Positions 27,661 through 48,915 of a stretch of 64,000 bases of DNA are shown piece by piece. Source of the stretch: Sphaerochaeta associata (GTDB lineage: Bacteria; Spirochaetota; Spirochaetia; Sphaerochaetales; Sphaerochaetaceae); NCBI RefSeq assembly GCF_022869165.1, contig NZ_CP094929.1, forward strand, positions 2,542,001 through 2,606,000, read 5' to 3'. A program made the position numbers and the translations under genes. The first letter of the stretch is position 1, and every line of letters begins with the position of its first letter. The notes under the pieces were generated by a model. That model was not told where the DNA came from. It searched no databases and saw nothing but the letters and a program-made list of their open reading frames with translations.

Positions 27661-28204
27661 CAAAGACCTCCGCCTGGAATACTTCAAAGCTGCAGGCTGC
27701 ATCCAGGTATGCCTGAGGATAGAGCCCTGCCTTCATGGAAAGATGGGATAACATCGTCGGCAGGTCCCACCCCTGTTCTACGGCAACCTGCGGTAGAAAA
27801 ACCGCCCGATGGTAGCCGTGCGTGAGCAGAACACCGTCGATGCCGAGGCGAATGTCAGACCAATTTTCGATGCTCCGCATGCTGCTCAAGAGGGATATCT
27901 CAATGATGAGGTGAGGCAGCTCTTCTTCGGTAACCGGATGAAAGCGCGGGTCGCTGAAGGCCGATTGGCGCGCAAGCGCCGGTATTTCCTGATAAAGGGG
28001 ACCCCTGCCCCACAGATTGCCGATGCATCCCCTCAAATCACCCTTGTCTGTTTTGAGGGTGACAAAGCAGCCCATCTCAAGGCTGAAAGGCAGACTGTTT
28101 TCCGCCTTCAGCCTTTCGCAGAGCGGTGTTGGATTATGGGTCAATGTACCTGCAATAGCCTCGCGGGCGAGTGACAGCAATTGCTTGTGTACCATACGGT
28201 CCAT
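27644..28204 (-). CDS. amrA: AMMECR1-domain protein (AmmeMemoRadiSam system protein A)
   Basis: A 186-residue protein with the AMMECR1 core: GCFVTLKTDKGDLRGCIGN is the diagnostic block, followed by AFSDPRFHPVTEEELPHL, a conserved IDGVLLTHG and FLPQVAVEQGWD. The human homologue is linked to a contiguous gene syndrome, but the bacterial function is unknown. GGAGG lies six bases before the ATG, overlapping the end of the MEMO gene, so the three genes form one unit. Confidence 0.92.
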   Translation of the reverse strand: MDRMVHKQLLSLAREAIAGTLTHNPTPLCERLKAENSLPFSLEMGCFVTLKTDKGDLRGCIGNLWGRGPLYQEIPALARQSAFSDPRFHPVTEEELPHLIIEISLLSSMRSIENWSDIRLGIDGVLLTHGYHRAVFLPQVAVEQGWDLPTMLSHLSMKAGLYPQAYLDAACSFEVFQAEVFGEDQL

Positions 28205-28207
28205 ACG

Positions 28208-29056
28208 TTACCTCCACAGGATGGTAGAATAGGCGACAAAGTTGGCGTCCGTCGATGAGCTGATGTCCAAGGACGTGTAGTAATCGGCTACCCATCCTCT
28301 GCTTTGCATGCGGCCGGCTATGTGGCTGACCACCATGGCTGGAGCGTAGCCGCATACCGTACTCTTTTTTGATGAACAAAAAGCGAAAGCCTCCTCGATC
28401 CGTCCCTCGCAGAGCAGGTGGGAGAGAGCCAGGTCATCCTCCCTGACTCTCAGGGGGGCTCCGCTCTGATACGGGGTGTAGCCGAAACGCGGGCCGTAAT
28501 GGGTGAAATCGCTGCTGGCGATCAAGGCTGTCCTGCCCTCCTTGATCTCATCCTGTCCGAGCTCTGAGACCAACGCATCAGCAATGGCTGCAACCGCTTG
28601 AGGCTGGGAAAAATGACTGATGAGGGCCAGGGTGACCTTCGGCCGATGAGAAAGACTTGCAATGTAGGGAAGTACCATCTCCAAGGCGTGTTCACTTTGT
28701 ATTGCAGAGAAGTACTTGGCTTTGGCACTCGCAAGGTTTTGGCTTTCCAGCATTCCCAACGGGGTTTCCATCCCATCAAGGGGAGAGCTGGCCAAGGTGT
28801 CCATGCCCAGGTTTGCATAGTGGCTCGGAGCAAGCACGACAAGACGCCGGACGTTGGAGAGGTCGGCGGCGAAGAACGGTGCAATACCCGTTTTGGAATA
28901 GAACAATCCTGCATGGGGAAGGACTGCAAACCGGTAAGGACAGTGCTGATACGTGGTATTCTTCAGCACCGTCTCGATCGATTCGCTGATCAAGAGCCTG
29001 AGTGCCTGTTCATCGGCGGGATACCAGGATCCAGCAAAAAGTGCTTTGCGTATCAT
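28208..29056 (-). CDS. amrB: MEMO-like protein (AmmeMemoRadiSam system protein B)
   Basis: A 282-residue protein of the MEMO1 family, related in fold to class III extradiol dioxygenases. FAGSWYPAD, LPHAGLFYSKTGIAP, LAPSHYANLG and ASSDFTHYGPRFGYTP give the His and Asp positions of the cleft, and the C-terminal CGYAPAMVV is conserved. It is the first gene of the trio MEMO-AMMECR1-radical SAM, all tightly spaced. Together they are a widespread conserved set thought to carry out a shared modification or small-molecule reaction. Confidence 0.92.
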   Translation of the reverse strand: MIRKALFAGSWYPADEQALRLLISESIETVLKNTTYQHCPYRFAVLPHAGLFYSKTGIAPFFAADLSNVRRLVVLAPSHYANLGMDTLASSPLDGMETPLGMLESQNLASAKAKYFSAIQSEHALEMVLPYIASLSHRPKVTLALISHFSQPQAVAAIADALVSELGQDEIKEGRTALIASSDFTHYGPRFGYTPYQSGAPLRVREDDLALSHLLCEGRIEEAFAFCSSKKSTVCGYAPAMVVSHIAGRMQSRGWVADYYTSLDISSSTDANFVAYSTILWR

Positions 29057-29212: not shown

Positions 29213-31570
29213 TCAGGACACAGAGACAATCGAAACAGAGGAGAGACAGCGCCACGATTTGGGAAGTACTTTATGTTCTCCAAGGATGGAGAGCTCACTT
29301 GCAAATACAATATCATCACTGCTTTTACCGACCAACAGGTCGAAGCTTCCACTTTCAAGCACCCGTTCCATCCGTTCCCCGATGAAGGAGAACAGGTCTG
29401 CAGGGAGGGTGAAGAGCACCTTTTTCTTTTCTCCGGGTTCAAGGCTCACACGGGCGAATGCTTTCAACTCCTTCACCGGGCGGACGATCGAGGCCACCTT
29501 GTCGTGAATGTACAGCTCAATCACCTCGTCTCCGCCGACCTTCCCGCTGTTCTCAACCTGCAGACTCACTTTGAATTCTCCGTTATTGGGAATCTGATTC
29601 TGCTCGACCTGGAAGTCCGACCAGGCAAAGCTGGTGTAGGACAGACCATGTCCGAAGGGAAACAAGGACCCGAACTGCTTCTGGGTCGGCAGGCCGCCGG
29701 CTTTCTTGTGATGATTGTATACGTACGGCATCGCACCGACCGATTTCGGGAACGAGAGAGGAGAGCGCCCACTCGGATTGTTCAACCCGACCAACGTCCT
29801 GGCAATCGCCTCACCCCCGCCTTCTCCGGGTAGCCAGGCAGAGAGAATGGCACGTGCATCAGTGACTGCTGCATGCATGGTATAGGGTCTGCCGCTTACA
29901 AGCACTACAACCACCGGTTTACCTGTCTTCAGGACTTCGTCCATCAACTGTTCCTGCACACCGGGGAGATTGAGGCTGGAGGCATCCAAACCTTCACCGA
30001 CCGTACCTTGTCCAAACAGACCGGCAAGGTCCCCGACGACCAGAATGGTTGCATCGGCCTTGCTGCTTGCTTCGCAGGCACGTTTGATCCCGCTCGTATC
30101 CTTGCTCAACTCATGCGCTGTCCCGCCACCCTGTTCATTGACGTCGCCGGGGAAGAATACGGCGCGTTCCATCTTGCTCTCATAGAGCATGCAACCAGGT
30201 TCAAACAGCACCTGTTCTTTTCCCATCACGTCTTCCAGGGCCGTCCGTATGGTCTTAGCCAATGCAGGGACGGTTTCCTTCGGACCATGGGAACCTTGCA
30301 GATGCACCGGAGGAGCATACCCGCCGAACATTGCATACGGGTGGTCTGCAAGAGCTCCGATGAGTGCGACCTTCATTCCCTTCTTCAAGGGCAGCGTACC
30401 ATCATTTTTCAACAGCACCAACGACTTTTCCGCCACTTCCCTGGCAAGCGCATGATTCTTCGCCGACCCGATGTCGATTGCATCCTCCTGGATGTAAGGA
30501 TGCTCGAACACACCTTGGCGCAGTTTCTCCTCAAGAATCCTGAGAACCGACCGGTCCAGCGCCTCATCGGTCACCAGACCCCTATACAGGGCTTCGATGA
30601 GTCCCTCCTTGAAGACGGTGAAACCGGGAAGTTCGATATCCATGCCGGCATTGAACGCCAAAGCAGCCGCCTCGGCCATATCATCGGCGACATGGTGGTC
30701 GTTGACCAGCTGCACGATAGCTTCATAGTCGGCTACGATCAAGCCGTCAAAGCCCCATTGCTTCTTCAGCAGGTCGGTTACCAGGCTGTAATTGCTGGTG
30801 CAGGGAATGCCGTCGATATCATGGTAGGCAGGCATCACCGAACCCGGATTTGCATTGCGTACAACCATTTCAAAGGGAAGGGCGAAGGTGTTGCGGAGCT
30901 CGCGCATCCCGCAGTGTACCGGAGCATGGTTGCGAGCCCCCTCGCTGAACGAGTGGCCGACAAAGTGCTTCAACGTTGCCAAGGGAGAACGGCCGGGCCC
31001 TTGCAGGCCTTTCACATAGCTGATACCCATCAGCCCGCACAGATACGGGTCCTCTCCGAAGGTCTCTTCCAGACGGCCCCAACGGGCATCACGGGCGACA
31101 TCCAGAACCGGGGCGAGCCCTTGATGGATGCCCAGGCTTCTCAGTTCATCACCGATGGCCGAAGCTGCGCGGCCGATCAAATCAGGATCCCAGGTCGCCC
31201 CATAGTTCAGGGCTGAAGGGAAAACCGTCGCCCCTTTGATCATCGCACCGGTCAAACACTCCTCATGGAGCATGGCTGGAATTTTCAAGCGGGTCTGCGT
31301 CACCAGGTAGTGCTGGAGTTTGTTGATGGCTTTCGCCTGCTTTCGGGGGTCGTTGGCCATGGTTCCGAACGGCCGGGTGAGCTGGCCGATGCCCTTGCCC
31401 AACACCTCTTGGTATACATCGCCGGTACGCTGCTCCTTCTGTCCGTATTCACGAACATTGAAGGTTCCATCCTCCCGTATTTCAAGCCAGGCAGATACTA
31501 GTTGGGCCACCTTTTCCTCGATGGTCATACTGTGCAAGAGCTGCTGAGCCCGTTCCCTATTCTGCTGCAT
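29213..31570 (-). CDS. Glycoside hydrolase family 3 (beta-glucosidase/beta-xylosidase type)
   Basis: A 785-residue cytoplasmic enzyme (no signal peptide). The N-terminal TIM barrel contains LAPVLDVARDARWGRLEETFGEDPYL and the nucleophile Asp in GLIVADYEAIVQL. The second alpha/beta domain has VALIGALADHPYAMFGGY, and LFPFGHGLSYTSF leads into a fibronectin-III-like C-terminal domain. AAGGAG precedes the ATG at 31570. As the last gene of a sugar ABC operon, it probably hydrolyses imported beta-linked oligosaccharides. Substrate choice (glucoside or xyloside) is not decidable. Confidence 0.94.
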   Translation of the reverse strand: MQQNRERAQQLLHSMTIEEKVAQLVSAWLEIREDGTFNVREYGQKEQRTGDVYQEVLGKGIGQLTRPFGTMANDPRKQAKAINKLQHYLVTQTRLKIPAMLHEECLTGAMIKGATVFPSALNYGATWDPDLIGRAASAIGDELRSLGIHQGLAPVLDVARDARWGRLEETFGEDPYLCGLMGISYVKGLQGPGRSPLATLKHFVGHSFSEGARNHAPVHCGMRELRNTFALPFEMVVRNANPGSVMPAYHDIDGIPCTSNYSLVTDLLKKQWGFDGLIVADYEAIVQLVNDHHVADDMAEAAALAFNAGMDIELPGFTVFKEGLIEALYRGLVTDEALDRSVLRILEEKLRQGVFEHPYIQEDAIDIGSAKNHALAREVAEKSLVLLKNDGTLPLKKGMKVALIGALADHPYAMFGGYAPPVHLQGSHGPKETVPALAKTIRTALEDVMGKEQVLFEPGCMLYESKMERAVFFPGDVNEQGGGTAHELSKDTSGIKRACEASSKADATILVVGDLAGLFGQGTVGEGLDASSLNLPGVQEQLMDEVLKTGKPVVVVLVSGRPYTMHAAVTDARAILSAWLPGEGGGEAIARTLVGLNNPSGRSPLSFPKSVGAMPYVYNHHKKAGGLPTQKQFGSLFPFGHGLSYTSFAWSDFQVEQNQIPNNGEFKVSLQVENSGKVGGDEVIELYIHDKVASIVRPVKELKAFARVSLEPGEKKKVLFTLPADLFSFIGERMERVLESGSFDLLVGKSSDDIVFASELSILGEHKVLPKSWRCLSSVSIVSVS

Positions 31571-31603: not shown

Positions 31604-32449
31604 CTACTCCTTCAGTGCACCGAGTGCAACGCCTGCAATTATGTATTTGCTGAGCAGGAAGTAGACGATAAACAGCGGCAATACCGTAAGGGCCAAGCCC
31701 AGGTAGACCGAACCATACTCGGTTTTATAAATATCACCGCGCAGAAGGCTCACCATGATCGGCATCGTATACTTCTCCCTGCGCGTTAAAATGATTGTGG
31801 GGATAAACAAATTGTTCCAGTTGATGACGAACGTAAAAATCGCTTGGGTTGCCATCGCCGGCTTCATAATCGGCAAAATGATGCGGTTGAAGGTGTAAAA
31901 CTCCCCCGCCCCGTCGATCCTGGCTGAGTTCACGATATCCAACGACAAGGTGGCCATAAGATACTGGCGCATGAAGAACACCATGGCAGGGGCTGCAATG
32001 GAGGGGAGAATCAAGGGCCAGAGGCTGTTGACCCATCCTATTCGGTACATCATCTGATAAAAACCGATGCCGGTGACCTGGGCCGGGATCATCATGATGG
32101 CCAGAATGAAGGAAAAGAAGGGCTGACGAAGCTTCCAGGTATAGGCAACCAAGGCGTATGCGGTAAGCGAGGAGAAGTAGACTGCACAAAGCGTAGCCCC
32201 GCTGCTTACCAGCATGGAGTTCATAAATCCGACTGCTGCGTTGAAGCTCTTGCCATTGAGAATCTTCCAGTTGCTGAGCAAAAATGTGGAAGGAAACAAG
32301 GCAACCGAGTTCTGCTGTATCTGGAACGTACTTCTGGTTGCATTCACAAACATGAGCCAGAACGGGAAGATGCTCAAAATCGAGAGGAAAATACAGACGA
32401 CATAGATAATCGTCTTGGTGATATTCGTAGATGCCTTCAAGCTCTTCAT
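31604..32449 (-). CDS. Carbohydrate ABC transporter permease (MalG type, CUT1)
   Basis: A 281-residue inner-membrane protein with about six hydrophobic segments starting IIYVVCIFLSILSIFPFWLMFV. The cytoplasmic EAA loop, where the ATPase docks, reads DGAGEFYTFNRIILPIMKPA. The start overlaps the upstream permease stop by four bases. No ATPase gene is in the operon, so it likely uses a shared MsmK-like ATPase from elsewhere, as is common for CUT1 systems. Confidence 0.93.
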   Translation of the reverse strand: MKSLKASTNITKTIIYVVCIFLSILSIFPFWLMFVNATRSTFQIQQNSVALFPSTFLLSNWKILNGKSFNAAVGFMNSMLVSSGATLCAVYFSSLTAYALVAYTWKLRQPFFSFILAIMMIPAQVTGIGFYQMMYRIGWVNSLWPLILPSIAAPAMVFFMRQYLMATLSLDIVNSARIDGAGEFYTFNRIILPIMKPAMATQAIFTFVINWNNLFIPTIILTRREKYTMPIMVSLLRGDIYKTEYGSVYLGLALTVLPLFIVYFLLSKYIIAGVALGALKE

Positions 32450-33408
32450 ACCGATGCCTCCTGCTTCAGTGCACGCAAGCGTGCCCGTTCCTGCCTTCTG
32501 AGTTTTTGCTCGCCCCTGTCACGCATCAGATAGAACATGGCAATGGAGAGGACGACGATGATCAGGAACATGAGCATGCTCGCCGCAGCGGCACGATTGT
32601 AGAGATAGCTGCCGCTGAAGGCCTGGTTGTGGATGAAGACGTTTGCGGTAAGGGTGGCGTTGTCCGGCCCTCCCCACAGATAGAGCTTGGGAATATCGTA
32701 CATCTGAAGGCCTCCGACCATGCTGGTGATCAGGACGTACAGCAGAATGGTTTTCAGTCTGGGAAGCGTAATCTTGAAGAATATCTGCGTCGGGGTGGCT
32801 CCATCCACCTCGGCAGCCTCAAAGAGGGTCGGGTTGATCCCAAGCACCCCTGCAATAAGCACGATCATGGAGTTTCCATACCACATCCAGAACTGGATGA
32901 AGGCAACGACTCCCTTTGAAGTCCATATCTGCATATGGAAGTTGGCAGGGGCATCGAGGAGCCCCAAGCTGATGAACAGGTCGTTTACAGGACCCTTGGG
33001 GTAGCCGAAAAGCGAGTTGAATAAAATGGCGATGGTAGCGGCGGTGATGATGTTGGGCATGTAAATCAGTACCTTGAAAGCCCCCTGGCCTTTAACCTTG
33101 AACCGACGGTTGGTGAACCAGGCGGTAAGCAACAAGGCCAACAGTATCTGGGGAATGAAGTTCATGATCCAGATGACCGCAGTATTGACCACTGATTTCT
33201 TGAAGGTGTCATTGGCTAAAATCGATTTGAAGTTCTCAAAGGGATCGGAAAGGAAGGTAAACGAGGTCCGTCCGAGGCCCCTGAGGTCGGTGAAGCCGAT
33301 AATTACCGTATAAATGGTGGGATAGAGAGAGAAAATCAGATAGGCAAGCACGAAAGGAATGGAAAAGTAATACCCGTACTTTGCATAGTTGATGCCTTTC
33401 TTATGCAT
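32446..33408 (-). CDS. Carbohydrate ABC transporter permease (MalF type, CUT1)
   Basis: A 320-residue membrane protein with six predicted helices; YYFSIPFVLAYLIFSLYPTIYTVIIGF is the first. The EAA loop is EAAEVDGATPTQIFFKITLPRL. It forms the channel with the MalG-type partner that follows it. It is separated from the binding-protein gene by 131 bases containing a strong hairpin, which would lower permease output relative to the binding protein. Confidence 0.93.
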   Translation of the reverse strand: MHKKGINYAKYGYYFSIPFVLAYLIFSLYPTIYTVIIGFTDLRGLGRTSFTFLSDPFENFKSILANDTFKKSVVNTAVIWIMNFIPQILLALLLTAWFTNRRFKVKGQGAFKVLIYMPNIITAATIAILFNSLFGYPKGPVNDLFISLGLLDAPANFHMQIWTSKGVVAFIQFWMWYGNSMIVLIAGVLGINPTLFEAAEVDGATPTQIFFKITLPRLKTILLYVLITSMVGGLQMYDIPKLYLWGGPDNATLTANVFIHNQAFSGSYLYNRAAAASMLMFLIIVVLSIAMFYLMRDRGEQKLRRQERARLRALKQEASV

Positions 33409-33496
33409 GGCGTGTTCCTCCAGTAAGTTTCACTGTGCATCGAAGCGTGCAGGAATAGCAAATCTCCATCCTTGCGATGCTGTTTGGCAGAAGAAT

Positions 33497-33525
33497 CCAG
33501 GTGCAGGTTGCAAACCCGCACCTGG
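33497..33525 (-). terminator. Intercistronic hairpin between binding protein and permease genes
   Basis: A 13-position stem with one mismatch (CCAGGTGC-x-GGTT against AACC-x-GCACCTGG) closes a three-base loop. It starts 15 bases past the binding-protein stop on the minus strand and is followed by a modest ATTCTTCT tail. It probably terminates part of the transcripts. Confidence 0.65.
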
Positions 33526-33539
33526 AAGTCAACATTCCC

Positions 33540-34892
33540 TTACAGGGCGCTGATTGCGAGGTTGTCGGCAACCTGCTTCTTGAACTCTGCGAGAGCAGCG
33601 GAGCGGGACTTGTTTCCTGCGCTGTAGGAACGAACCTGATCACGCCAGTACATGTTGATGGTCTCATCATACTGGGTCTTGTTCTTACCGGTGGCGAAAG
33701 CGCCGGCGGGTACGAATACGTCAAACATATCCTGTCCACCGAGGAACGGCAGGGTGCCGTCGCTCTTCTTCATGACCGTACCGGAAGCAACAGTGTCCTT
33801 GGTTCCGCCGGGACCATTGAGGGTGCCGTTGGCCCAGAAGTACTGCAGACCGGTCTCGGAGCTGTCCAGGGTGATCCATTCGATAATCTTGCCCACTGCG
33901 TCCTTGACGGGGCTGTTGTTGTTTGCAATAACCCACGTACCGCCCCAGAAGAATCCTACCGGAGGTTCGCACACTGCCCAGTCACCATAGGTGCCTTCAC
34001 CGGGCTTGGTTCCACCGCTGTTGCCGGCCATGACGTAATTGATCAGCCATGCGGGACCGAAGAAACCAAATACCTTCTTGGCACCGGCGTCTTTCATGTC
34101 GGCAAACCAAGCATCGGTCCAGTCGCGGGTGTCGTTGTGATACCCCTTATCGAGCATGGTCTTGGCAATGTCAAGGAAATCTTCACGGGTCTTGTCGACA
34201 TAGAGCTTTCCGTCTACGATCCATCCCTTCGGGGAAGAGCCTTCGATGGCGTGCCAGATGTCTCCGTCACCGCTGATGATGGCGTAGTTTTTCTTGCGAA
34301 GGTCTTCTGCAGCCTGGAAGAATTTCTCCCAACCCGGACCGACCTTGGATCCGACTACTGCTGGATCGTCGGTGCCCCAGACGTCTTTTGCAATAGAGCG
34401 GCGATAGATGAAAGCTCCACCGGTTGCCTGATAGCCCAAACCTACCAGCTCACCCTTGCTGTTGCTTCCGATGTCAACAGTATAAGGAGCGATATCGGAT
34501 TCCTTAAGCTTCTTGTCTACATCGATGCCCAAGGATTTGTAGGGAGCTGCGAAATGTGCAGCATCACCCTGGGTATACTTCAGGACGAATGCAGACTCTG
34601 CACAGTAGAGGTCGGGAGCATTGTCTCCACCCGAAGCAAGGGCCTGGTCAAGTGCCGGCTGATAAGCTCCGTCAGTGGTGGCGATGATGGTTGTGTTGAT
34701 CTCATAGTCGAAATCGGGATTAAGTGCTTTGTACTTTTCGAGCATCTTGGGCACTTCATCGGTGAAGCTCCAAAGATTGATGACCTTTCTCGCAGGGGCC
34801 TTGGCGGCTTCAGTCTGGCCGGCGGCGAACAGCGAGAGACTCATGCAGACGACCAGCAGCAAACTGACGACGATGCGCATGTTCCGTTTCAT
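33540..34892 (-). CDS. Extracellular solute-binding protein family 1 (sugar ABC transporter)
   Basis: A 450-residue periplasmic sugar-binding protein. A basic N-terminus and hydrophobic stretch (IVVSLLLVVCMSLSLFAAG) form a signal peptide ending before QTEA. VINLWSFTDEVPKMLEKYK is the usual first strand, and TWVIANNNSPVKDAVGKIIEW is a typical C-lobe element. AAGGAGG precedes the ATG. It heads the sugar operon and lies directly downstream of the LacI-kinase and response-regulator genes; palindromes in its upstream region are likely operators. Confidence 0.93.
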   Translation of the reverse strand: MKRNMRIVVSLLLVVCMSLSLFAAGQTEAAKAPARKVINLWSFTDEVPKMLEKYKALNPDFDYEINTTIIATTDGAYQPALDQALASGGDNAPDLYCAESAFVLKYTQGDAAHFAAPYKSLGIDVDKKLKESDIAPYTVDIGSNSKGELVGLGYQATGGAFIYRRSIAKDVWGTDDPAVVGSKVGPGWEKFFQAAEDLRKKNYAIISGDGDIWHAIEGSSPKGWIVDGKLYVDKTREDFLDIAKTMLDKGYHNDTRDWTDAWFADMKDAGAKKVFGFFGPAWLINYVMAGNSGGTKPGEGTYGDWAVCEPPVGFFWGGTWVIANNNSPVKDAVGKIIEWITLDSSETGLQYFWANGTLNGPGGTKDTVASGTVMKKSDGTLPFLGGQDMFDVFVPAGAFATGKNKTQYDETINMYWRDQVRSYSAGNKSRSAALAEFKKQVADNLAISAL

Positions 34893-34913: not shown

Positions 34914-34976
34914 ATATGTCCAAGACATATGAACGATTACCACGCAGGCTACTTTGCTTTCGTACAACGCTTGTAC
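34914..34976 (-). promoter_or_regulatory. Operator-like palindromes upstream of the sugar-binding-protein gene
   Basis: Two perfect inverted repeats lie just upstream of the gene: ATATGTC-CAA-GACATAT (34914-34930) and GTACAA-CGC-TTGTAC (34962-34976). The first abuts a TACAAT-like box (34909-34914, minus strand). A third, TAGGAC-ATTT-GTCCTA, lies farther up at about 35053-35068, close to the response-regulator stop. The arrangement suits binding by the NarL-type regulator or a LacI-type repressor. Confidence 0.5.
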
Positions 34977-35076
34977 TGAACAGAGGTTCCCACAACCATC
35001 ATACTAGAAGAGGCTGAGCGAGAATGACACTAGGTGTTTGTCTTGACTTTGGATAGGACATTTGTCCTAGGTTTCA

Positions 35077-35733
35077 TCAACGTTCGTTGCTTTTCACCCA
35101 TTGGATCGCAAACCTGCGCAGAGAGCCTGCGTCGTTTATCGACAGCTTGTGACGGATGTTATCCCTATAGACATTGATGGTCTTGACCGAGAGGTTGAGG
35201 TTCTGTGCTATCTCGGAGACACCGAACCCTTGACCCAGGAGGCGCAGGACCTCCATCTCCCTGATGCTCAGCAGCTTTACCGGATCGATTTCCTCCCGAC
35301 TGTCCCCAAGCAGCATCGTGTCCAGCATCCGTTCGCGCATATCCTTGGACAAGTAGATTTTTCCCTTGAGCACCAACTCGATGGCATCGAGCAGCGAGGA
35401 GGCTGCTTCCTGTTTCATCACATATCCCTTTGCCCCCGCCTTCAAGGCACTGGAAGCGTAGATGATTTCATCGTACATCGATACAACGATGCAGGAAATC
35501 CTGGGATGGGTGGTTTTCAACGTCTTGACCAGCTCAAGACCGTTCTCCTGCTGCAACGAGATGTCCACCAGAGCCACATCAACCTCGATCGAATCGAGCA
35601 ATGAGAGAGCCTGGGTGATGGTGGTCGCCTCAGCGGTTACCTTGTAACGCCGGACATTTTCTATGACACTGGCCAGGCCCTGCCTGAACAGGGGGTGGTC
35701 ATCCACCAAGAGGAATCGAACGGTATGATTCAT
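35077..35733 (-). CDS. NarL/LuxR-type response regulator
   Basis: A 218-residue two-component regulator. The receiver domain has the acidic pair in LLVDDHPLFRQGL, the phospho-acceptor Asp in VALVDISLQQENGLEL and a Lys in KAGAKGYVMKQE. The C-terminal LuxR-type helix-turn-helix reads LSIREMEVLRLLGQG ... LSVKTINVYRDNIRHKL. Its ATG overlaps the stop of the histidine kinase gene (ATGA), so the two are a pair. The adjacent sugar ABC operon is the likely target. Confidence 0.95.
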   Translation of the reverse strand: MNHTVRFLLVDDHPLFRQGLASVIENVRRYKVTAEATTITQALSLLDSIEVDVALVDISLQQENGLELVKTLKTTHPRISCIVVSMYDEIIYASSALKAGAKGYVMKQEAASSLLDAIELVLKGKIYLSKDMRERMLDTMLLGDSREEIDPVKLLSIREMEVLRLLGQGFGVSEIAQNLNLSVKTINVYRDNIRHKLSINDAGSLRRFAIQWVKSNER

Positions 35734-38048
35734 GCATGCTTCTCCTTCAGTAGTACGCTCACCGTCGTACCCTCCTCGTTGCTCTGGATGGTAAGCTCGG
35801 CATCAGCCATGGCTGCACGATTGCGCATGATTCTCAGTCCCAGCCCGCGCTTTTGCAGCTTCTTGGGTAGTCCCGTCCCATCATCGCTTACGGTGAGGCA
35901 CAGGGTGGTTTCACCTTCCTCTCCATCAATTCTGCTGGATGAGATCTCTATATGGCTTGCATGTGAGTGCTTGATGGCATTGGTCAGTGCTTCCTGCACG
36001 ATACGGAACAAGTTGAGCTCCCGGGTGGGGTCCTTTATATGAAACAAGGGATCGACATTCACATCAATCTCCACCTGGGCATACCGCAGGCTGTCCGCCA
36101 CCAACGCCTCCAGTCGCTTCTGGAAACTCGAGTGTTCGAGGTCAAGCGGCATCAGGCCGCGACTGATCGTCTTGATTTTGCTTATCGCCTCATTCAAATG
36201 CCTGCTGATGGACTCAAGCTCATCGGCAATGATGCCTTCTTTGTTTCCCAATCGTTGCTTGGCAGAGGAAGCCAACAAGGAGATGCCAAGCAGGTATTGG
36301 CACAAATCGTCGTGGAGGTCCTGCCCGATCCGTTCCATGGTCTTGGTTGAAATCTCCATGACCTCCTGTTCCAGCTCCGTCCGCCGCTTGATCTCAGAAA
36401 GCAGGTCCTGTGTTCTCACTCTCACCTGCTCCTCAAGATTCTTTTCGTGCTTTCGAATCTGAGAGAGAAGCAACGAACCTTTGAAAGTGCTGGACACCTG
36501 CTCCTGCAGCACATCATAGAGAGCGGGCAGCACCATGCCGAAGGGGACCAGGAAGTAACCAAGCGGCTCATCCATATAGACAAGCGGAAGCAGGACCCAA
36601 CGACGCTGTTTCCACGTTTTCCCCAACACAGGGGGAAGAATCTCCTGTGCCGGGAACGTAGAGGAGAAGGCCTGCTCGTCCTCGAGATCCTGAATGGTCA
36701 TCAGCAACTGAACCTGGTCCGAACGGTTGAGAAACTTGACCAAATACCCTTCATGTATGCCGAAGAGGTGCAAGCTTTGTTTGAGATTGATCATCAACTG
36801 CTCAAGCTCGAAGGTTCCGCTGAGCATGGCGCTTACTTTGCGAAGCGAGTCGAACGAACACTCCACAGCCACACGCTTTGCTGCCTGGAAGCGGCCGATC
36901 TTGTCTCCGATGAGCGCTCTTGCAGCTCCGGTGAGCATCGCCTGTGTCTTGCTGCTGAGATCGCTTTCCACGCTTGTCTTATACTCGATCACCGAAAGAT
37001 ACTCGTTCCAACGATGCATCGAACCGCTTTCGCTTGCAGTGGCATCAAGGGCACGGTTGAGCCGGAAAATCATTTGATGGTAGTCACCAAGGCGCATCAG
37101 ACGCAGCAGGTCCTGAACGGCCAGTCTCTCCGCCGGGGTTGCATAGCTTGGCAGCTCGTGCAAACCCGGAGTATAGCTGACATGGGGATTGCAACCGCAT
37201 GACTCCCTGATCACCGCCGTGCAAGGCAGTGTGATATGCTCCTCCTCCCCTCCCGCCATGATCCGGTCAAGGACATCGATGGCAAGAACGCCCATCTCAT
37301 ACAGCGGCTGGACGACGGTGGTCAGGGGGGGAAGCGTATAGCGGGAGGGGTCCAGTCCATCGAATCCGATGACCGACACATCGTCGGGAACCCGAAGACC
37401 CGATGCGGCAAGCTCTTCCAAGGCTCCCTGGGCCATCCAGTCGTTGAGACAGACGAGGCAGTCGAACGTCAGGTGATTGTCGAGTAGATACCGGACAGCC
37501 TCCCTTCCCGCCACATCGGTGAAGGTACCGGGCATGATCAGGGCGGGATCGACTTCGATGCCGTGAGCCTGAAGCTCTTGGATGCAGGCACTCAGTCTTC
37601 GTATCGACTCCTCATGGGTTTCAGGGCCTTTGAGGATGGCAAACCGACGACGGTGGTGCACTTCAATCAGGTGCTGCACCAGTGAAGCGATGCCCTCATC
37701 GCCTTCCACTGTTATATCGCTCATCCCCTGCATTCGCATGCCGATGGAAACCCTGGGCAATGAAGACCAAGGAGAGAAGAACTTGTTCAAATCAACGGTT
37801 GTAAAAAAGGTGGCCAACGAAGAAGCGATGATTATCAGCCCGTCTATGTTCTGTTCACTGGCAAGATGGTAAGCGAGGTTGGAGGAGGCTTCACTGGCGA
37901 TCGGCGATCCAAGACGGGAGCCGATGAAGGAAATCGTGCCGATATTGCGCTTCTTGGCTTCCTGTTCCATGGCATGCCAGAGGGCCGATTGATACTCATC
38001 ATCCAGACTGGCAGTAAATATTCCGATACAACGATGCTTGGACTGCAA
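35730..38048 (-). CDS. Cytosolic sensor histidine kinase with LacI-like sugar-binding domain
   Basis: A 772-residue protein without signal peptide or membrane segment. Residues about 6-286 are a periplasmic-binding-like domain of the LacI/GalR group (CIGIFTASLDDEYQ, DGLIIIASSL, LVCLNDWMAQGALEEL, VSVIGFDGLDPSRYTLPPLTTV) but with no DNA-binding HTH. A Cys pair (ESCGCNP) ends it. A helical part and a GAF-like region follow, then a coiled coil (530-570). The HisKA_3 motif IGQDLHDDLCQYLLG carries His 579, followed by an HATPase with EALTNAIKHSHA and GTGLPKKLQKRGLGL. The start is inferred as a TTG with AAGGAG six bases upstream; the longer frame to 38198 crosses the promoter. Confidence 0.88.
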   Translation of the reverse strand: MQSKHRCIGIFTASLDDEYQSALWHAMEQEAKKRNIGTISFIGSRLGSPIASEASSNLAYHLASEQNIDGLIIIASSLATFFTTVDLNKFFSPWSSLPRVSIGMRMQGMSDITVEGDEGIASLVQHLIEVHHRRRFAILKGPETHEESIRRLSACIQELQAHGIEVDPALIMPGTFTDVAGREAVRYLLDNHLTFDCLVCLNDWMAQGALEELAASGLRVPDDVSVIGFDGLDPSRYTLPPLTTVVQPLYEMGVLAIDVLDRIMAGGEEEHITLPCTAVIRESCGCNPHVSYTPGLHELPSYATPAERLAVQDLLRLMRLGDYHQMIFRLNRALDATASESGSMHRWNEYLSVIEYKTSVESDLSSKTQAMLTGAARALIGDKIGRFQAAKRVAVECSFDSLRKVSAMLSGTFELEQLMINLKQSLHLFGIHEGYLVKFLNRSDQVQLLMTIQDLEDEQAFSSTFPAQEILPPVLGKTWKQRRWVLLPLVYMDEPLGYFLVPFGMVLPALYDVLQEQVSSTFKGSLLLSQIRKHEKNLEEQVRVRTQDLLSEIKRRTELEQEVMEISTKTMERIGQDLHDDLCQYLLGISLLASSAKQRLGNKEGIIADELESISRHLNEAISKIKTISRGLMPLDLEHSSFQKRLEALVADSLRYAQVEIDVNVDPLFHIKDPTRELNLFRIVQEALTNAIKHSHASHIEISSSRIDGEEGETTLCLTVSDDGTGLPKKLQKRGLGLRIMRNRAAMADAELTIQSNEEGTTVSVLLKEKHA

Positions 38049-38078
38049 AACACGCTCCTTACGCGACGGCTTTCTCTC

Positions 38079-38106
38079 ATCATACCGTATGGAACAAGGA
38101 TTGCAA
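38079..38106 (-). promoter_or_regulatory. Promoter of the sensor kinase/response regulator operon
   Basis: On the minus strand TTGCAA (38101-38106), 16 bases, TATGAT (38079-38084). The predicted start near 38072 leaves a leader containing AAGGAG before the TTG start at 38048. This supports the shorter kinase start. Confidence 0.6.
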
Positions 38107-40413: not shown

Positions 40414-42117
40414 ATGAAAAAATCCACAGTGCTTCTGCTACTCGCGATTGTGTTGCTCATCGTCCCCGGTTTCGTCTTTGCCGGAGGAGCAGCTGAGAAA
40501 CCCGCCGCCGCACCTGTTGCAAAGGGCCCGATCATCATCGGCAGCAATAGTGCCCCCAGAACATTGAACCCCCTCTACTTCCCCAGTAGACAGGATTCAA
40601 TCGTCACCAATCTGATCTTCGACAATTTCGTGCAACCTGACAAGGAAGGCAGGATAGTCGGAGGCCTGGCCGAGTCATTCTCCGTCGCCGCCGATGGCGT
40701 CACCTATACGTTCAACCTTGCCAAGAACGTAGTGTGGCATGACGGCGAAAAGTTTGACGGGGACGACGTCGTCGCCACACTGAACATGCTCGCTCACCCC
40801 GACTATGCAGGCGGTGTCGACCGCGTCAACCAGATTGTCGGTGTCGAGGAATTCAAGGCCAATCCGACTTCCACAATCTCCGGTGTCAGCCTGAGTGCGG
40901 ACAAAATGACGGTGACCATCAAAATAAAGAAACCGTCGGCAACCTTCCTCCCCGGCCTGTATTTCCAGATTCTTCCCGAGCACCACATCAAGAACATCAA
41001 CCTTGCAGAGCTCGAGAAGGCAGCCTTCAATACCAATCCCGTCGGTACCGGCCCCTTCAAATTCAAGGAATGGAAGGTAGGCAACTCAATTACCGTCGAG
41101 AAGAACAGTGCATACTGGCAGGGAGAACCGAAGGTGGACTCCATCATCGTGAAATTCGGTGAATTGGTAGCCTTGACCACCCAGTTGCAATCAGGTGAAA
41201 TCGACATGCTCGAAGTCGAGGAAGAAGGTTACAACACCTTCAAGAATAACAAGAACTTCAACATTTACACCTACCCGATGCTCAGTGTCGACTATGTTGG
41301 ATTCCTTACCGGACCCGGCAGGGCAGCCGACACCCGTGATGACCGTCCCGTCTTCAACAAGAACATCCGTCAGGCTCTCGCATATGCAACCAACAAAGAG
41401 GCTCTGGTCAATGGTGCCTACGGCGTGATGGGCTATGCACATGATTCGATTTTCCCGAAGAACTCACTAGGCGACAGTCCCAACGACAATCCGTACACCT
41501 TCAACCTTGCAAAGGCAAAAGCCATGATCGAGGCAGAAGGATATGTGATGAACAACACCACAAAGTTCTACGAGAAGAACGGCAAGAGCCTGCGCATCGA
41601 GATGTACTATGCTGAATCCAGCGCACCTCAAGCTGCAATTTTCAAGGAACAGTGGAAGGCCGCAGGCGTAGACTTGAATCTCAAGCTTGTTGACTTCGGC
41701 GCCCTCATCGGAGTACTGCTCAGAAAGAGCGACGCAAACGGCAAATTGGCAAATGAAGTCGGTTACGACCAAACCACTGCCGCCACCGACTCCAACTTTG
41801 ACACCTACCTGCTTGGGTTCGCCCAGGAATCAGATCCTCAGGAGTATGCCCAGTACTTCGTCGACGATCCTTTCTGGAACTTCTATCACTACGACAATGC
41901 CAATGTACGCACGTGGTTTGCAGAGCAGGAAGTCACCACCGACCAGGCCAAGCGTTCAGCAATTCTTCACCAGATTTCCGAGCAGATCACCGAGGACCTT
42001 CCTTGGTTCACCTATGCAGGAAAGAACGAGACAATTATTGCCGGCAAGAACATTGGAGGTCTGAATCCCGATACCCGTGGATACACCCTCGATACTCACC
42101 TTTGGTTCCTTCAGTAA
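40414..42117 (+). CDS. Extracellular solute-binding protein family 5 (peptide ABC transporter)
   Basis: A 567-residue binding protein. The signal segment VLLLLAIVLLIVPGFVFA ends at GGAAEK. SNSAPRTLNPLYFPS opens the mature protein, then FNLAKNVVWHDGEKFDGDDVVATLNML and IRQALAYATNKEALV follow, all family-5 landmarks. GGAGG stands upstream of the ATG at 40414. The matching permeases and ATPases are encoded five genes later in the same direction. It is diverged from the binding protein at 805-2334, so it likely has a different ligand. Confidence 0.92.
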   Translation: MKKSTVLLLLAIVLLIVPGFVFAGGAAEKPAAAPVAKGPIIIGSNSAPRTLNPLYFPSRQDSIVTNLIFDNFVQPDKEGRIVGGLAESFSVAADGVTYTFNLAKNVVWHDGEKFDGDDVVATLNMLAHPDYAGGVDRVNQIVGVEEFKANPTSTISGVSLSADKMTVTIKIKKPSATFLPGLYFQILPEHHIKNINLAELEKAAFNTNPVGTGPFKFKEWKVGNSITVEKNSAYWQGEPKVDSIIVKFGELVALTTQLQSGEIDMLEVEEEGYNTFKNNKNFNIYTYPMLSVDYVGFLTGPGRAADTRDDRPVFNKNIRQALAYATNKEALVNGAYGVMGYAHDSIFPKNSLGDSPNDNPYTFNLAKAKAMIEAEGYVMNNTTKFYEKNGKSLRIEMYYAESSAPQAAIFKEQWKAAGVDLNLKLVDFGALIGVLLRKSDANGKLANEVGYDQTTAATDSNFDTYLLGFAQESDPQEYAQYFVDDPFWNFYHYDNANVRTWFAEQEVTTDQAKRSAILHQISEQITEDLPWFTYAGKNETIIAGKNIGGLNPDTRGYTLDTHLWFLQ

Positions 42118-42131
42118 CCATACAAACTCCA

Positions 42132-42155
42132 CTGTGGCAGCGTTTGCTGCCACAG
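42132..42155 (+). terminator. Perfect hairpin after the binding-protein gene
   Basis: CTGTGGCAGC, loop GTTT, GCTGCCACAG (ten perfect pairs) followed by TTCTTT. It lies 14 bases past the binding-protein stop and 17 bases before the next start; likely a partial terminator within the operon. Confidence 0.7.
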
Positions 42156-42171
42156 TTCTTTGGAACAAGGC

Positions 42172-43458
42172 ATGGATCACATACCGTCAACCCTTGAACT
42201 GCTGCAAGACCTTCTACACATCGATTCGCAGAACCCTCCCGGAAACGAGCAGGGCATGGTCGACTATATCGCTGAGTATTGCAGAAAGCTCGGCATACCA
42301 TACACCACCTACACCTACGCTGAGAATCGCTCAAACCTATTTATTACATTCGGAACGGGAAGCCAAAGGCCCCTGACGCTTCTGGGCCATCTCGACACCG
42401 TACGCTTCGACAGCGCAGCGTGGACCTACCCTCCGCTCGGAGGCGAAATTCATGACAACTACCTCTACGGCAGGGGAGCTTTGGACATGAAATACTTTGT
42501 TGCAGCTGCTATGACCATTGTAGGTCGGTTGCATGCAATGCAAGACCGTTTCAACGGCCCCATCAATGTACTCTTTACCGCCGATGAGGAGACCGGAAGC
42601 TCCCAGGGTATACGCAAGGTTCTCCAAGAGAACAAGGTCCGTGATGCCCTAGCCGGATCACTCGTATTGAATGAAGGCGGCGGCTTTGCCACCCGTCACG
42701 GCCAAACACTGACGTACCTGTTTGAAACAGGACAGAAATCAGTAGCACGGCTTCGGGTGAGCATACCAGAGCTGCCTGATACCAATCCCTACTTCCCCAC
42801 CCTCTCTCATGAAAAAATTCTCGTGCAGGTCATCAGACGACTCGACGCCTTGAAGCTGGACACAGCCCTGCCTCGTTCGGTCGAGGACTTGAAGCGCGTT
42901 TTCTTTGCGGAAAACACCGATTTTTCAGCATCTGATCGTCGGCTCTTCGAAACCATGAGTCAGTCGATGATTACCCCGACCATCATACACGGCGGCTCCA
43001 GAAACAAGCAGTTGCCTGCTGGATTGAAAGCAGCCATCGACTTCGATTGCCGCCTCCTTCCCAATCTGGGTAGACAGGAATTCCTTGACGCCATCGAAAA
43101 AGCCATCGGCGACCTTCCGGTCACATTTGAGCTCACTTCCTTCTCACAAGGCTATGAAGCGACAGTGGGACCGGATCTTGTATATCTGCTGGAGACGGCA
43201 CTACAGAAGCATGATAGCGAGATTGAATCGCTGGTGCCGTTCATCACCCCAGGTTCGAATGACGGTAAATACCTCAAACCGCTCGGCTGCGATGTCCTGG
43301 GGTTTGCTCCGCTCTCCAGCGAGCAACCCTTCAGCTCCATCATGCCCCTGATACATGGTGTGGATGAGCGAATTTCCCTTGCCTCGCTTACTTTTTGTGA
43401 ACAGGTGCTCCAAGACGTTTGTCTGACGTACCTGACAGGAGACACCATACGTGAGTAA
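42172..43458 (+). CDS. M20 family metallopeptidase (ArgE/DapE type), copy 1
   Basis: A 428-residue zinc amidohydrolase. The metal and catalytic motifs are visible: LLGHLDTVRFD (His and Asp), YGRGALDMKYFVAA (bridging Asp), FTADEETGSSQG (catalytic Glu and metal Glu), NEGGGFATRHG, and the C-terminal His in MPLIHGVDERISL. A dimerisation domain lies between. These enzymes cleave N-acyl amino acids or dipeptides. An in-frame TTG at 42160 is possible, but the ATG at 42172 is preferred. The stop overlaps the next gene by eight bases. Confidence 0.9.
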   Translation: MDHIPSTLELLQDLLHIDSQNPPGNEQGMVDYIAEYCRKLGIPYTTYTYAENRSNLFITFGTGSQRPLTLLGHLDTVRFDSAAWTYPPLGGEIHDNYLYGRGALDMKYFVAAAMTIVGRLHAMQDRFNGPINVLFTADEETGSSQGIRKVLQENKVRDALAGSLVLNEGGGFATRHGQTLTYLFETGQKSVARLRVSIPELPDTNPYFPTLSHEKILVQVIRRLDALKLDTALPRSVEDLKRVFFAENTDFSASDRRLFETMSQSMITPTIIHGGSRNKQLPAGLKAAIDFDCRLLPNLGRQEFLDAIEKAIGDLPVTFELTSFSQGYEATVGPDLVYLLETALQKHDSEIESLVPFITPGSNDGKYLKPLGCDVLGFAPLSSEQPFSSIMPLIHGVDERISLASLTFCEQVLQDVCLTYLTGDTIRE

Positions 43459-44620
43459 CGTCGAAAAGATCACCCAACTGATCCAGGAACTTCGCAATCA
43501 AGACATTGACACCCTGCTCATCCTCTCTCGAGAGGATTCCGATAAGGTTCTTCCTCTCCTGCTGCCCGTCCACGTGGTTGCGCAAACAGCTTTCTTCATC
43601 AACAAAACCGGCAAGCCCATCGTGCTGACCGGCAGTACCGATGCAAATATGTACAAGGACTTTGGCATTTTCGAAATTGTCGAAGTGAAGGAGGATTTCG
43701 AAACCGACTTCCTTCGCTTGTTCAATCGCATCAATCCGAAAAAACTCGCGCTGAACATCAGCGAGCTTGACTACCTCGCCGATGGACTTACCGTCGGTCA
43801 GTACATGCTTTTGGAGAAGATTATCGGTCCAAAGCGTTTGGCCGGGTGTGAAACGAGCAGTGAACAGATTGTAAGAAAGCTGCGCAGCATCAAGAGCGAG
43901 TACGAAATACAGTGCATCAGGCATGCTGTGGAAGTGACCTGCAGCATCTATGAGGAAGTAGCCTCATGTATCTCGATCGGTATGAGTGAGACGCAAATCG
44001 GAGACCTCTTTGTCGAAGGCATGAAACGCCATCAGGTGGTCAATGCGTTTGGAGAGCCCTACAGTTACCCTTTGGTCTGCATAAACCGCTGCGGTCTTGC
44101 ACACCGTGAGCCGAACGCAAAAAACATCCTTGAACAAGGAGATATCCTGATTTGCGACTTCAGCGTCTCCTACAAAGGGTATTGCTCTGATATCGCACGA
44201 AGTTTTTATGCCCTGGCCGAGGGAGAGCAAGAAGCCCTGCAGGAGGTGTTGAGGGCATTTCAGACCACCGTCGATGCGGTGTCTGCAGTCATTGAAGCCA
44301 TCAAGCCAGGCCTGATGGGATATGAAGCCGACCGCATTGGTCGTTCCATCATAGAGAACGCAGGCTATCCGACCATTCGCCACTCAACAGGCCACCAGCT
44401 CGGCATGCGTGTGCACGATGGGGGAACCTCCCTCAGCCCCGAATCCAATCCCAACAGCCATTTCCCCATCCAGAAGGGAGAAGTCTATGCAATCGAACCC
44501 ACGGTAATCCAGGATGGCGGGGCGCCCTCCTTCATTGTTGAAGAAGATGTGGTTGTGACCGAAAGCACAGTGCAAATTCTCAGCAGACGCCAGAGGGAAC
44601 TCTGGTATATTGCGAGGTAG
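43451..44620 (+). CDS. M24 family peptidase (Xaa-Pro aminopeptidase-like), copy 1
   Basis: A 389-residue pita-bread metallopeptidase. The five metal ligands can be traced: the Asp pair in ILICDFSVSYKGYCSDIAR, His in HSTGHQLGMRVHDGG, Glu in VYAIEPTVI and Glu in FIVEEDVVV. The N-terminal creatinase-like domain spans residues 1-140. The start is a GTG inside the previous gene. Members cleave Xaa-Pro bonds or creatine-like amidines; specificity here is unknown. It pairs with the M20 gene before it, and the same pair is repeated directly downstream. Confidence 0.9.
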   Translation: MSNVEKITQLIQELRNQDIDTLLILSREDSDKVLPLLLPVHVVAQTAFFINKTGKPIVLTGSTDANMYKDFGIFEIVEVKEDFETDFLRLFNRINPKKLALNISELDYLADGLTVGQYMLLEKIIGPKRLAGCETSSEQIVRKLRSIKSEYEIQCIRHAVEVTCSIYEEVASCISIGMSETQIGDLFVEGMKRHQVVNAFGEPYSYPLVCINRCGLAHREPNAKNILEQGDILICDFSVSYKGYCSDIARSFYALAEGEQEALQEVLRAFQTTVDAVSAVIEAIKPGLMGYEADRIGRSIIENAGYPTIRHSTGHQLGMRVHDGGTSLSPESNPNSHFPIQKGEVYAIEPTVIQDGGAPSFIVEEDVVVTESTVQILSRRQRELWYIAR

Positions 44621-44623
44621 GCC

Positions 44624-45859
44624 ATGGATATCGTTGAGCTTTTCAAGCAGATGGTACGTCTGGATACCACCAATCCCCCGGGCAATGAGTACCTGATGAC
44701 CGATCTCATCAGTGCCGTTCTTGCCAAGGAAGGCATTTGGCATGAAGTCCAGACTACAGCCGAAGGAAGGACCAATCTGATCGCCCGCATCGGGGTCGAA
44801 TCAGAATTGCCTCCGATAATCCTCATCAGTCACACCGATGTAGTGGGTTGCGAGAACCAAGCTTGGAAACATCCGCCCTTTGAAGCCGTAGAGGAGGACC
44901 AGATCATCTACGGAAGAGGGACGGTGGACACCAAGCACCTGACGGCAATGCAAATTGGTGCTTTGCTTGCCTTGAAGGACCAACCCCTCAATCGTGCCGT
45001 CTATCTGCTTGCCACATCGGATGAGGAACAGGGGAGCAGCCTGGGCATGCCCAGGCTTGTCCAACAGTATGGTGATCTCTTCAAGCGCGGCTTGGTGATC
45101 AATGAAGGGGGAGGATTTTGCATCACCCATCAGGGAAACCCCTACTGGTTGTGCACCGTCGGGGAGAAAGGACGAATCGAGGTGAAGGTCACCATCGAGG
45201 GGGCCAGTGGACCCGCTTCCTTTAAAAGTGAGAACAAGGCAATCGATACCTTTATTGGGTTGCTGGACCACCTTGGCTCCTATCAGTTCCCGGCCGTCGA
45301 CACCGCTGTCCACCATCTTTTCAGCGAGGTTGTCGGAACAGATATAACCCACCCGTTTCTGAAACACTTCAGTTGGTACAACAGCCACGATGCAATCATT
45401 TTACAACGCTACGATATCGGCACCCAGGTGAACGTGCTGCCCTATCGGATCGAGTTCGAGTTCTCGTTGCAGTTATTGCCTGGAAGAAGTGAACAAGAAG
45501 CCCGAGCTCTGCTCGCAGCACTCTTTGCCGGCACCACCGTTTCATACGAAGTCCTTCGTTTCGATGCGGGTTTTGAGAGTGACTGCACCAATCACTTCTA
45601 CAAAAGCATGGAGACCTTGGCGCAGAAGCACTACGGTGCACACAGGCTCATTCCCGTGTATGCACTGGGAAGAACCGACGGGAGATTTCTCGGACCACTG
45701 CCATCAGATGTCTACGGGTTCTCCCCGGTGACCGATGCCATACCGTTCGAAACCATCTTGAAGCTGGTACATCAGGTCGATGAGAGAATCGACCGGGATT
45801 CGATTGTGAAGGGAACTCGGTTTCTGACCGACCTGATACAAACCATGGGGAACTGTTGA
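44624..45859 (+). CDS. M20 family metallopeptidase, copy 2
   Basis: A 411-residue paralogue of the M20 enzyme at 42172. Motifs are ISHTDVVGCENQAWKHPPFEAV, YGRGTVDTKHLTAMQ, ATSDEEQGSSLGMP, NEGGGFCITHQG, and the final metal His in LKLVHQVDERIDRDS. It starts four bases after the M24 stop. Middle and C-terminal sequence differ clearly from copy 1, so the two probably have different substrates and are not a recent duplication. Confidence 0.9.
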   Translation: MDIVELFKQMVRLDTTNPPGNEYLMTDLISAVLAKEGIWHEVQTTAEGRTNLIARIGVESELPPIILISHTDVVGCENQAWKHPPFEAVEEDQIIYGRGTVDTKHLTAMQIGALLALKDQPLNRAVYLLATSDEEQGSSLGMPRLVQQYGDLFKRGLVINEGGGFCITHQGNPYWLCTVGEKGRIEVKVTIEGASGPASFKSENKAIDTFIGLLDHLGSYQFPAVDTAVHHLFSEVVGTDITHPFLKHFSWYNSHDAIILQRYDIGTQVNVLPYRIEFEFSLQLLPGRSEQEARALLAALFAGTTVSYEVLRFDAGFESDCTNHFYKSMETLAQKHYGAHRLIPVYALGRTDGRFLGPLPSDVYGFSPVTDAIPFETILKLVHQVDERIDRDSIVKGTRFLTDLIQTMGNC

Positions 45860-45861
45860 AT

Positions 45862-47040: not shown

Positions 47041-47054
47041 GGGAGTAAGAGCAT

Positions 47055-48014: not shown

Positions 48015-48025
48015 GGGTGAACAAC

Positions 48026-48898: not shown

Positions 48899-48915
48899 GA
48901 ACCAGGAGTACGATG

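What the first reader, a model, noticed from the sequence alone, without database searches (positions are those of the whole stretch)
35077..38106. Histidine kinase that senses with a cytoplasmic LacI-like sugar-binding domain
Seen: one 772-codon frame with a full LacI/GalR-type ligand domain but no HTH, a GAF-like region, a coiled coil and a NarL-type kinase core, with no signal peptide or membrane segment. A NarL-type regulator overlaps its end and a sugar ABC operon with a GH3 glycosidase follows. Known: LacI-type domains bind sugars; two-component kinases usually sense outside the membrane. Inference: it reads the cytoplasmic level of a sugar released by the GH3 enzyme and controls the uptake operon through phosphorylation instead of direct repressor binding.
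Basis: partly seen in the sequence, partly recalled or inferred. Interest (0 to 1): 0.62.

Follow-up and report, generated by a model that had tools for sequence, protein, structure and literature searches.

The report
Cytoplasmic xyloside-sensing two-component system
A spirochaete has put the sugar-binding half of a Lac-type repressor onto a soluble histidine kinase, which with its partner regulator and a private DNA site most likely switches on uptake and breakdown of xylose-containing sugars; the parts are known, but I found no published study of this combination.

Summary
The kinase is 38048-35730 (TTG start, 772 aa) and its NarL-type regulator 35733-35077 (ATGA overlap). The kinase has a complete LacI/PurR ligand domain (1-286; PurR Z 28.8) without HTH, a helical segment, a GAF fold, a coiled coil and a HisKA_3/HATPase core, and no membrane segment. 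All 25 genomes of the order that carry the kinase also carry the transporter, and HK-RR-SBP-permease-permease-GH3 is kept in the loci long enough to show it. The seven residues at PurR's effector-contact positions are invariant in xylosidase-linked kinases and differ in the host's HTH repressors. The GH3 is closest to solved beta-xylosidases; relatives place the same transporter beside xylA/xylB, xylB or GH52. A 7-2-7 palindrome, TAGGACA-NN-TGTCCTA (35054-35069), stands before the transporter in all 23 orthologous loci examined, 54-55 bp from the -10 (near -67), and occurs once in the 3.55-Mb genome. Best reading: cytoplasmic xylose or xylo-oligosaccharide binds the kinase and phosphorylated regulator activates the operon. 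Ligand and sign of response are inferred. LacI-type sensors with kinase, AraC, LuxR or GGDEF outputs recur in Spirochaetota: a new variant of a known kind.

The parts
35730..38048 (-). Sensor histidine kinase, 772 aa, TTG start: LacI-type ligand domain (1-287), helical segment (305-361), GAF (about 391-532), coiled coil, HisKA_3 DHp (H579, DxxxQ) and HATPase_c (677-769)
35077..35733 (-). NarL/FixJ-type response regulator, 218 aa, receiver + GerE, ATGA overlap with the kinase
35054..35069 (.). Operator O1, 7-2-7 palindrome TAGGACA-NN-TGTCCTA, probable regulator-binding site
35031..35044 (-). O2, weaker second site AAGACAAACACCTA (perfect TAGGCA-TT-TGCCTA in L083), centre 24 bp from O1
35001..35006 (-). 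Putative -10 hexamer TAGTAT of the operon promoter, 55 bp from the O1 centre (54-55 bp in 23 orthologous regions)
33540..34892 (-). Extracellular sugar-binding protein of the ABC transporter
   Evidence: weak match to a cellobiose-binding protein, 8bfy
32446..33408 (-). ABC permease 1 (BPD_transp_1)
31604..32449 (-). ABC permease 2 (BPD_transp_1)
29213..31570 (-). GH3 glycosidase, 785 aa, no evident signal peptide, closest to solved beta-xylosidases (7zb3, 8c7f)

Best explanation
A soluble two-component system that measures a sugar inside the cell. Xylosides enter through the SBP/permease transporter and are cut by the cytoplasmic GH3 beta-xylosidase; D-xylose (or the imported xylo-oligosaccharide) binds the cleft of the LacI-type domain. 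The closing movement passes through the helical segment, GAF and coiled coil to the HisKA_3 core and shifts the kinase/phosphatase balance towards phosphorylating the NarL-type partner. The phosphorylated dimer binds the 7-2-7 palindrome O1 (about -67) and the weaker O2 (about -43) and activates the SBP-permease-permease-GH3 operon, closing a positive loop. Shown here: architecture, folds, invariant cleft residues, catalytic motifs, operon conservation, operator conservation and fixed spacing. Inferred: ligand identity, ligand-dependent kinase activity, regulator-DNA contact and sign.
For: Fold: residues 1-286 superpose on PurR (Z 28.8), RbsR (28.1), LacI (27.8). Cleft: Y19, Q20, H145, E147, R151, F176, D230 align with PurR Y73, F74, R190, T192, R196, F221, D275 (alignment; that these are PurR's effector contacts is my own knowledge) and are invariant in two kinase subfamilies about 30% identical (hypergeometric p 1.5e-6, rows not independent). 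The nine-position signature YQHERFNDD is kept in all 20 xylosidase-linked kinases examined, down to 37-42% identity, and differs in the host's HTH-LacI proteins and in LacI-AraC paralogs. Linkage: HK-RR-SBP-P1-P2-GH3 in the orthologous loci long enough; all 25 genomes with the kinase also have the SBP, out of 31 with SBP among 139. Sugar: GH3 664 bits to solved beta-xylosidases, next family 379; in G116 the same SBP-permease-GH3 cassette adjoins xylA, xylB and an HTH LacI; in four genomes of another genus the transporter adjoins xylB, a GH3 and an AraC regulator; in G077 a second-subfamily LacI kinase, NarL-type regulator and GH52 adjoin the 75%-identical SBP. Operator: present in all 23 intergenic regions (14 of 23 match every specified base; the rest differ by one or two); -10 at 54-55 bp; one exact copy in 3.55 Mb; core TAGG-N8-CCTA only 17 times per genome, yet before the transporter or target operon in four distant loci (L170, L172, L173, L174) and L058, L059, including L170 where HK-RR lie at the operon's end. 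NarL precedent: 7-2-7 sites, natural activation from -44.5 and -77.5, engineered activation from -67.5 (PMC7419079).
Against: No binding, phosphorylation or expression data. LacI kinases of another family (L176, L177, L185) have nearly the same cleft (YQHDRFNDD) beside chemotaxis genes and no sugar operon, so the cleft alone does not diagnose xylose. Own-genome xylA/xylB (L130) lie elsewhere and have no O1-type site. The second site O2 is degenerate in several orthologs, and one distant locus (L175) has no TAGG-N8-CCTA at all. The -10 and transcript start are inferred from sequence. The linker's GAF could carry a second signal.
Confidence: 0.68

Rival explanations
1. Same circuit, other ligand: the sensor reads another cytoplasmic sugar (L-arabinose, glucose, a hexose or pentose phosphate) and serves as a general pentose or carbon-status input to the xyloside operon.
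For: The Treponema-like kinases with almost the same cleft sit beside chemotaxis genes, not sugar operons. The GH3 also scores 808 bits with a beta-xylosidase/alpha-L-arabinosidase model, below its 1050-bit cut-off. The SBP's only solved relative is a cellobiose-binding protein, at 50 bits.
Against: Neighbouring enzymes across four gene arrangements are beta-xylosidases, xylose isomerase or xylulokinase.
Confidence: 0.22
2. Repressing rather than activating circuit: the regulator holds the operon off and the sugar turns the kinase to phosphatase.
For: LacI-type domains usually act in repressors; the kinase keeps the HDxxxQ motif (H579, D580, Q584) associated with phosphatase activity.
Against: O1 and O2 lie upstream of the -10 at about -67 and -43 with fixed spacing, and no good -35 is evident; NarL activates from comparable positions.
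Confidence: 0.12
3. The LacI domain is a ligand-free dimerisation scaffold and the GAF or another input controls the kinase.
For: A GAF fold lies between the LacI domain and the kinase; no ligand has been shown.
Against: All seven cleft positions are invariant while the LacI domain as a whole is far less conserved (45 of 287 invariant).
Confidence: 0.06

Closest known systems
LacI/GalR-family repressors (PurR, RbsR, LacI)
   Same: Ligand domain has the same fold over its whole length (Z 27-29), with R151, N202 and D230 at LacI R197, N246 and D274.
   Different: No HTH or hinge helix; output is a kinase acting through a separate regulator.
E. coli XylR (cytoplasmic LacI-like xylose domain + AraC DNA-binding domain; own knowledge)
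   Same: A cytoplasmic LacI-type domain with a swapped output in xylose control; the same genome has a 1064-aa LacI+GAF-like+AraC paralog aligning with kinase residues 2-547 at 26%.
   Different: XylR binds DNA itself; here the output is phosphotransfer.
NarX/NarL, UhpB/UhpA, DesK/DesR-type two-component systems
   Same: HisKA_3 core, HDxxxQ motif, GerE-type regulator, 7-2-7 inverted repeat as described for NarL (PMC7419079).
   Different: Those kinases have membrane sensors; this one is soluble with a LacI-type sensor.
XylFII-LytS-YesN and Bacteroides hybrid two-component systems (own knowledge; PMC10766802 for the hybrid systems)
   Same: Two-component control of xylose or xylan genes by a sugar-binding protein or domain.
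   Different: They sense outside the membrane; this one senses the cytoplasm.
Periplas_BP-type domains on diguanylate cyclases (PMC8846402)
   Same: The same kind of domain coupled to a signalling output; a LacI-GGDEF protein was found here in L182.
   Different: Output is c-di-GMP synthesis, not phosphotransfer to a dedicated regulator.

Membership tests
HisKA_3 / NarL-type histidine kinase | HisKA_3 phosphoacceptor helix with H-box and HATPase_c with N and G boxes | tested here: met
   Pfam HisKA_3 36.2 bits and HATPase_c 55.5 bits, both above cut-off; H579, D580, Q584, N690, D722, G724, G726 invariant in 22 sequences
HisKA_3 / NarL-type histidine kinase | Autophosphorylation and transfer to a partner regulator | not testable with these tools
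   needs purified proteins
LacI/GalR transcription factor | LacI-type ligand-binding fold | tested here: met
   PurR Z 28.8 over 274 residues; Peripla_BP_3 104.9 bits
LacI/GalR transcription factor | N-terminal HTH and hinge helix | tested here: not met
   No HTH in Pfam; the model starts at PurR residue 55. Works like a LacI sensor but is not a LacI repressor
NarL/FixJ response regulator | Receiver with phosphoacceptor Asp plus GerE HTH | tested here: met
   Response_reg 86.7 bits, GerE 52.2 bits; aspartate of VDIS at residue 57
NarL-type 7-2-7 operator | Two 7-bp elements as inverted repeat separated by 2 bp, upstream of the promoter | tested here: met
   TAGGACA-NN-TGTCCTA in 23 orthologous regions at fixed distance from the -10; binding not tested
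GAF domain | GAF fold | tested here: met
   Z 12.4, rmsd 3.0 over 139 residues to 5w10; no Pfam GAF hit
XylR (LacI-AraC) regulators | AraC HTH output | tested here: not met
   none in the kinase; present in paralog L057

The most novel reading that the evidence does not exclude
Spirochaetota hold a modular class of cytoplasmic sugar receptors: a LacI-type ligand domain lacking an HTH, in several cases followed by a GAF-like relay, joined to interchangeable outputs (HisKA_3 or HisKA kinase, AraC, LuxR/GerE, GGDEF). In the xyloside branch the kinase version took the place of direct DNA-binding regulators in front of one transporter, giving an intracellular-metabolite two-component switch with its own private operator.
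Probability: 0.6. Interest if true: 0.62.

Novelty: new variant of a known kind. Interest (0 to 1): 0.52.

Why it matters
Sugar operons are usually controlled by a cytoplasmic one-component repressor or a two-component system looking outside. This joins the two: a repressor's sugar pocket drives a phosphorelay that reads the inside of the cell. Ligand domain, kinase, regulator, operator and target operon are all defined here, so whether intracellular sugar can set kinase activity is directly testable. It also proposes a function for proteins that recur across Spirochaetota.

Tried and rejected
Plus-strand reading of 35077-37400: stops throughout. The 822-aa GTG frame: runs into the upstream 118-aa ORF and orthologs start at the TTG position. 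GGDEF output for the 1064-aa paralog, my first guess: Pfam shows AraC. A wider regulon: no further exact O1 in the genome and no excess of 2-mismatch sites over the reversed-pattern control; none near xylA. GH52 in the host genome: no hit, but the controls did not ring either, so inconclusive. Kinase homologs on plasmids: no full-length match. Literature: ten searches in the held library gave no paper on a LacI-domain histidine kinase; subscription papers are not held. Other phyla were not searched as whole genomes.

Full report
WHAT IS THERE. The window lies in a 3.55-Mb single-contig genome; named relatives are Spirochaetales bacteria. On the minus strand run, in order: a 772-aa kinase (38048-35730), a NarL-type regulator (35733-35077), a sugar-binding protein, two permeases and a GH3 glycosidase (29213). 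The kinase starts at a TTG preceded by AAGGAG; most orthologs have ATG at that codon.

ARCHITECTURE. Pfam finds Peripla_BP_3, HisKA_3 and HATPase_c and no HTH. An AlphaFold2 model on 22 sequences (pLDDT 80.4) gives a LacI-type domain 1-286 that matches PurR (Z 28.8, rmsd 2.3), RbsR and LacI and begins where PurR's HTH and hinge end. The middle, folded alone (pLDDT 88.7), is a helical segment (305-361) and a GAF fold at about 391-532 (Z 12.4). No segment reaches membrane-like hydropathy clearly (1.62 against 2.64 in the permease) and there is no signal peptide. The HDxxxQ, N and G boxes are invariant.

LIGAND CLEFT. Aligned with E. coli PurR and LacI, residues Y19, Q20, H145, E147, R151, F176, D230 fall on PurR Y73, F74, R190, T192, R196, F221, D275, which I know as effector contacts. 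All seven are invariant among the aligned kinases, in two subfamilies about 30% identical. Over 47 LacI-type domains the nine-letter signature YQHERFNDD marks every xylosidase-linked kinase, while the host's HTH-LacI proteins and the LacI-AraC paralogs differ. Caution: Treponema-like kinases beside chemotaxis genes have YQHDRFNDD.

OPERON. HK-RR-SBP-P1-P2-GH3 is kept in the orthologous loci long enough to show it, down to about 52% kinase identity. In 139 genomes of the order, the 25 that have the kinase all have the SBP; six more have the SBP without it. Those six show what stands in: in G116 xylA, xylB and an HTH LacI; in G129, G130, G132, G134 xylB, AraC and GH3; in G077 a second-subfamily LacI kinase, NarL-type regulator and GH52. 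The window's GH3 scores 664 bits with solved beta-xylosidases and 379 with the next family. Hence the xylose or beta-xyloside inference.

OPERATOR. The gap between regulator and SBP genes holds TAGGACA-NN-TGTCCTA (35054-35069), a 7-2-7 inverted repeat, in all 23 orthologous regions; 14 match all specified bases and the rest differ by one or two. A putative -10 lies 54-55 bp downstream throughout, placing O1 near -67 if the start is 12 bases past the hexamer's first base; a weaker O2 sits near -43. The exact palindrome occurs once in the genome; 2-mismatch hits (9 further sites) do not exceed the reversed-pattern control (14). The core TAGG-N8-CCTA occurs 17 times in 3.55 Mb, about one per 200 kb, yet lies just before the transporter or target operon in L170, L172, L173, L174 and after the regulator in L058 and L059. 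In L170 the kinase and regulator sit at the end of the operon but the site is still in front of the SBP. L175 lacks it. NarL uses such 7-2-7 sites and activates naturally from -44.5 and -77.5 and, engineered, from -67.5 (PMC7419079).

MECHANISM. Shown: parts, folds, conservation, linkage, operator. Inferred: cytoplasmic xylose or xylo-oligosaccharide closes the LacI cleft, raises regulator phosphorylation, and the regulator activates the operon. Activation rather than repression is inferred from operator position. Ligand identity is the least certain step.

RELATION TO KNOWN SYSTEMS. By tested features it is a HisKA_3 kinase and a NarL-type regulator; it is not a LacI repressor (no HTH) nor a XylR (no AraC). 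In the phylum LacI-type sensors occur with HisKA_3, HisKA, AraC, GerE and GGDEF outputs, and a Deinococcus EAL protein aligns with kinase residues 1-553. I found no paper on a LacI-domain histidine kinase in the held library. Hence a new variant of a known kind, with an unusually complete comparative case.

Noticed in passing
G000:C1:191628-193700 (L088:7551-10147): A second LacI-domain kinase of the host genome is interrupted by an in-frame TAA, and its partner regulator is a 141-aa receiver without the GerE domain. In G091 (L060) the kinase is intact and the regulator seems equally short.
   Followed up: partly
L057:6488-9682 (G000:C1, near 3468987): 1064-aa LacI-type + GAF-like + AraC protein aligning with kinase residues 2-547, beside genes that look like hexuronate catabolism (by eye): same sensor module, different output.
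   Followed up: partly
window 34962-34976: Inverted repeat GTACAA-GCG-TTGTAC downstream of the putative -10, found only in the closer relatives: possible site of a further regulator.
   Followed up: no
window 34914-34930: Hairpin-like repeat ATATGTC-TTG-GACATAT just upstream of the SBP ribosome site; other orthologs have different but still complementary arms, though predicted folds vary and L065 and L066 show none. No Rfam hit.
   Followed up: partly
kinase residues 281-286, window about 37191-37208: The LacI domain ends in a conserved SCGC motif shared by LacI-kinase, LacI-AraC and LacI-GGDEF proteins but absent from HTH-LacI repressors; metal, redox or structural role unknown.
   Followed up: partly
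L176, L177, L185: In a Treponema-like family a LacI-domain kinase lies back to back with a NarL-type regulator beside what look like cheA, cheW and cheX genes.
   Followed up: no
window 26698-29056: Three genes that look like AmmeMemoRadiSam, AMMECR1 and a radical-SAM protein (by eye, not scanned) follow the GH3 in most close relatives but not in the more distant ones.
   Followed up: no
window 31604-34892: The sugar ABC operon has no ATPase gene, so it probably borrows a shared one encoded elsewhere.
   Followed up: no
window 40414-50908: Oligopeptide-type ABC transporter genes interleaved with alternating M20-like and M24-like peptidase genes.
   Followed up: no
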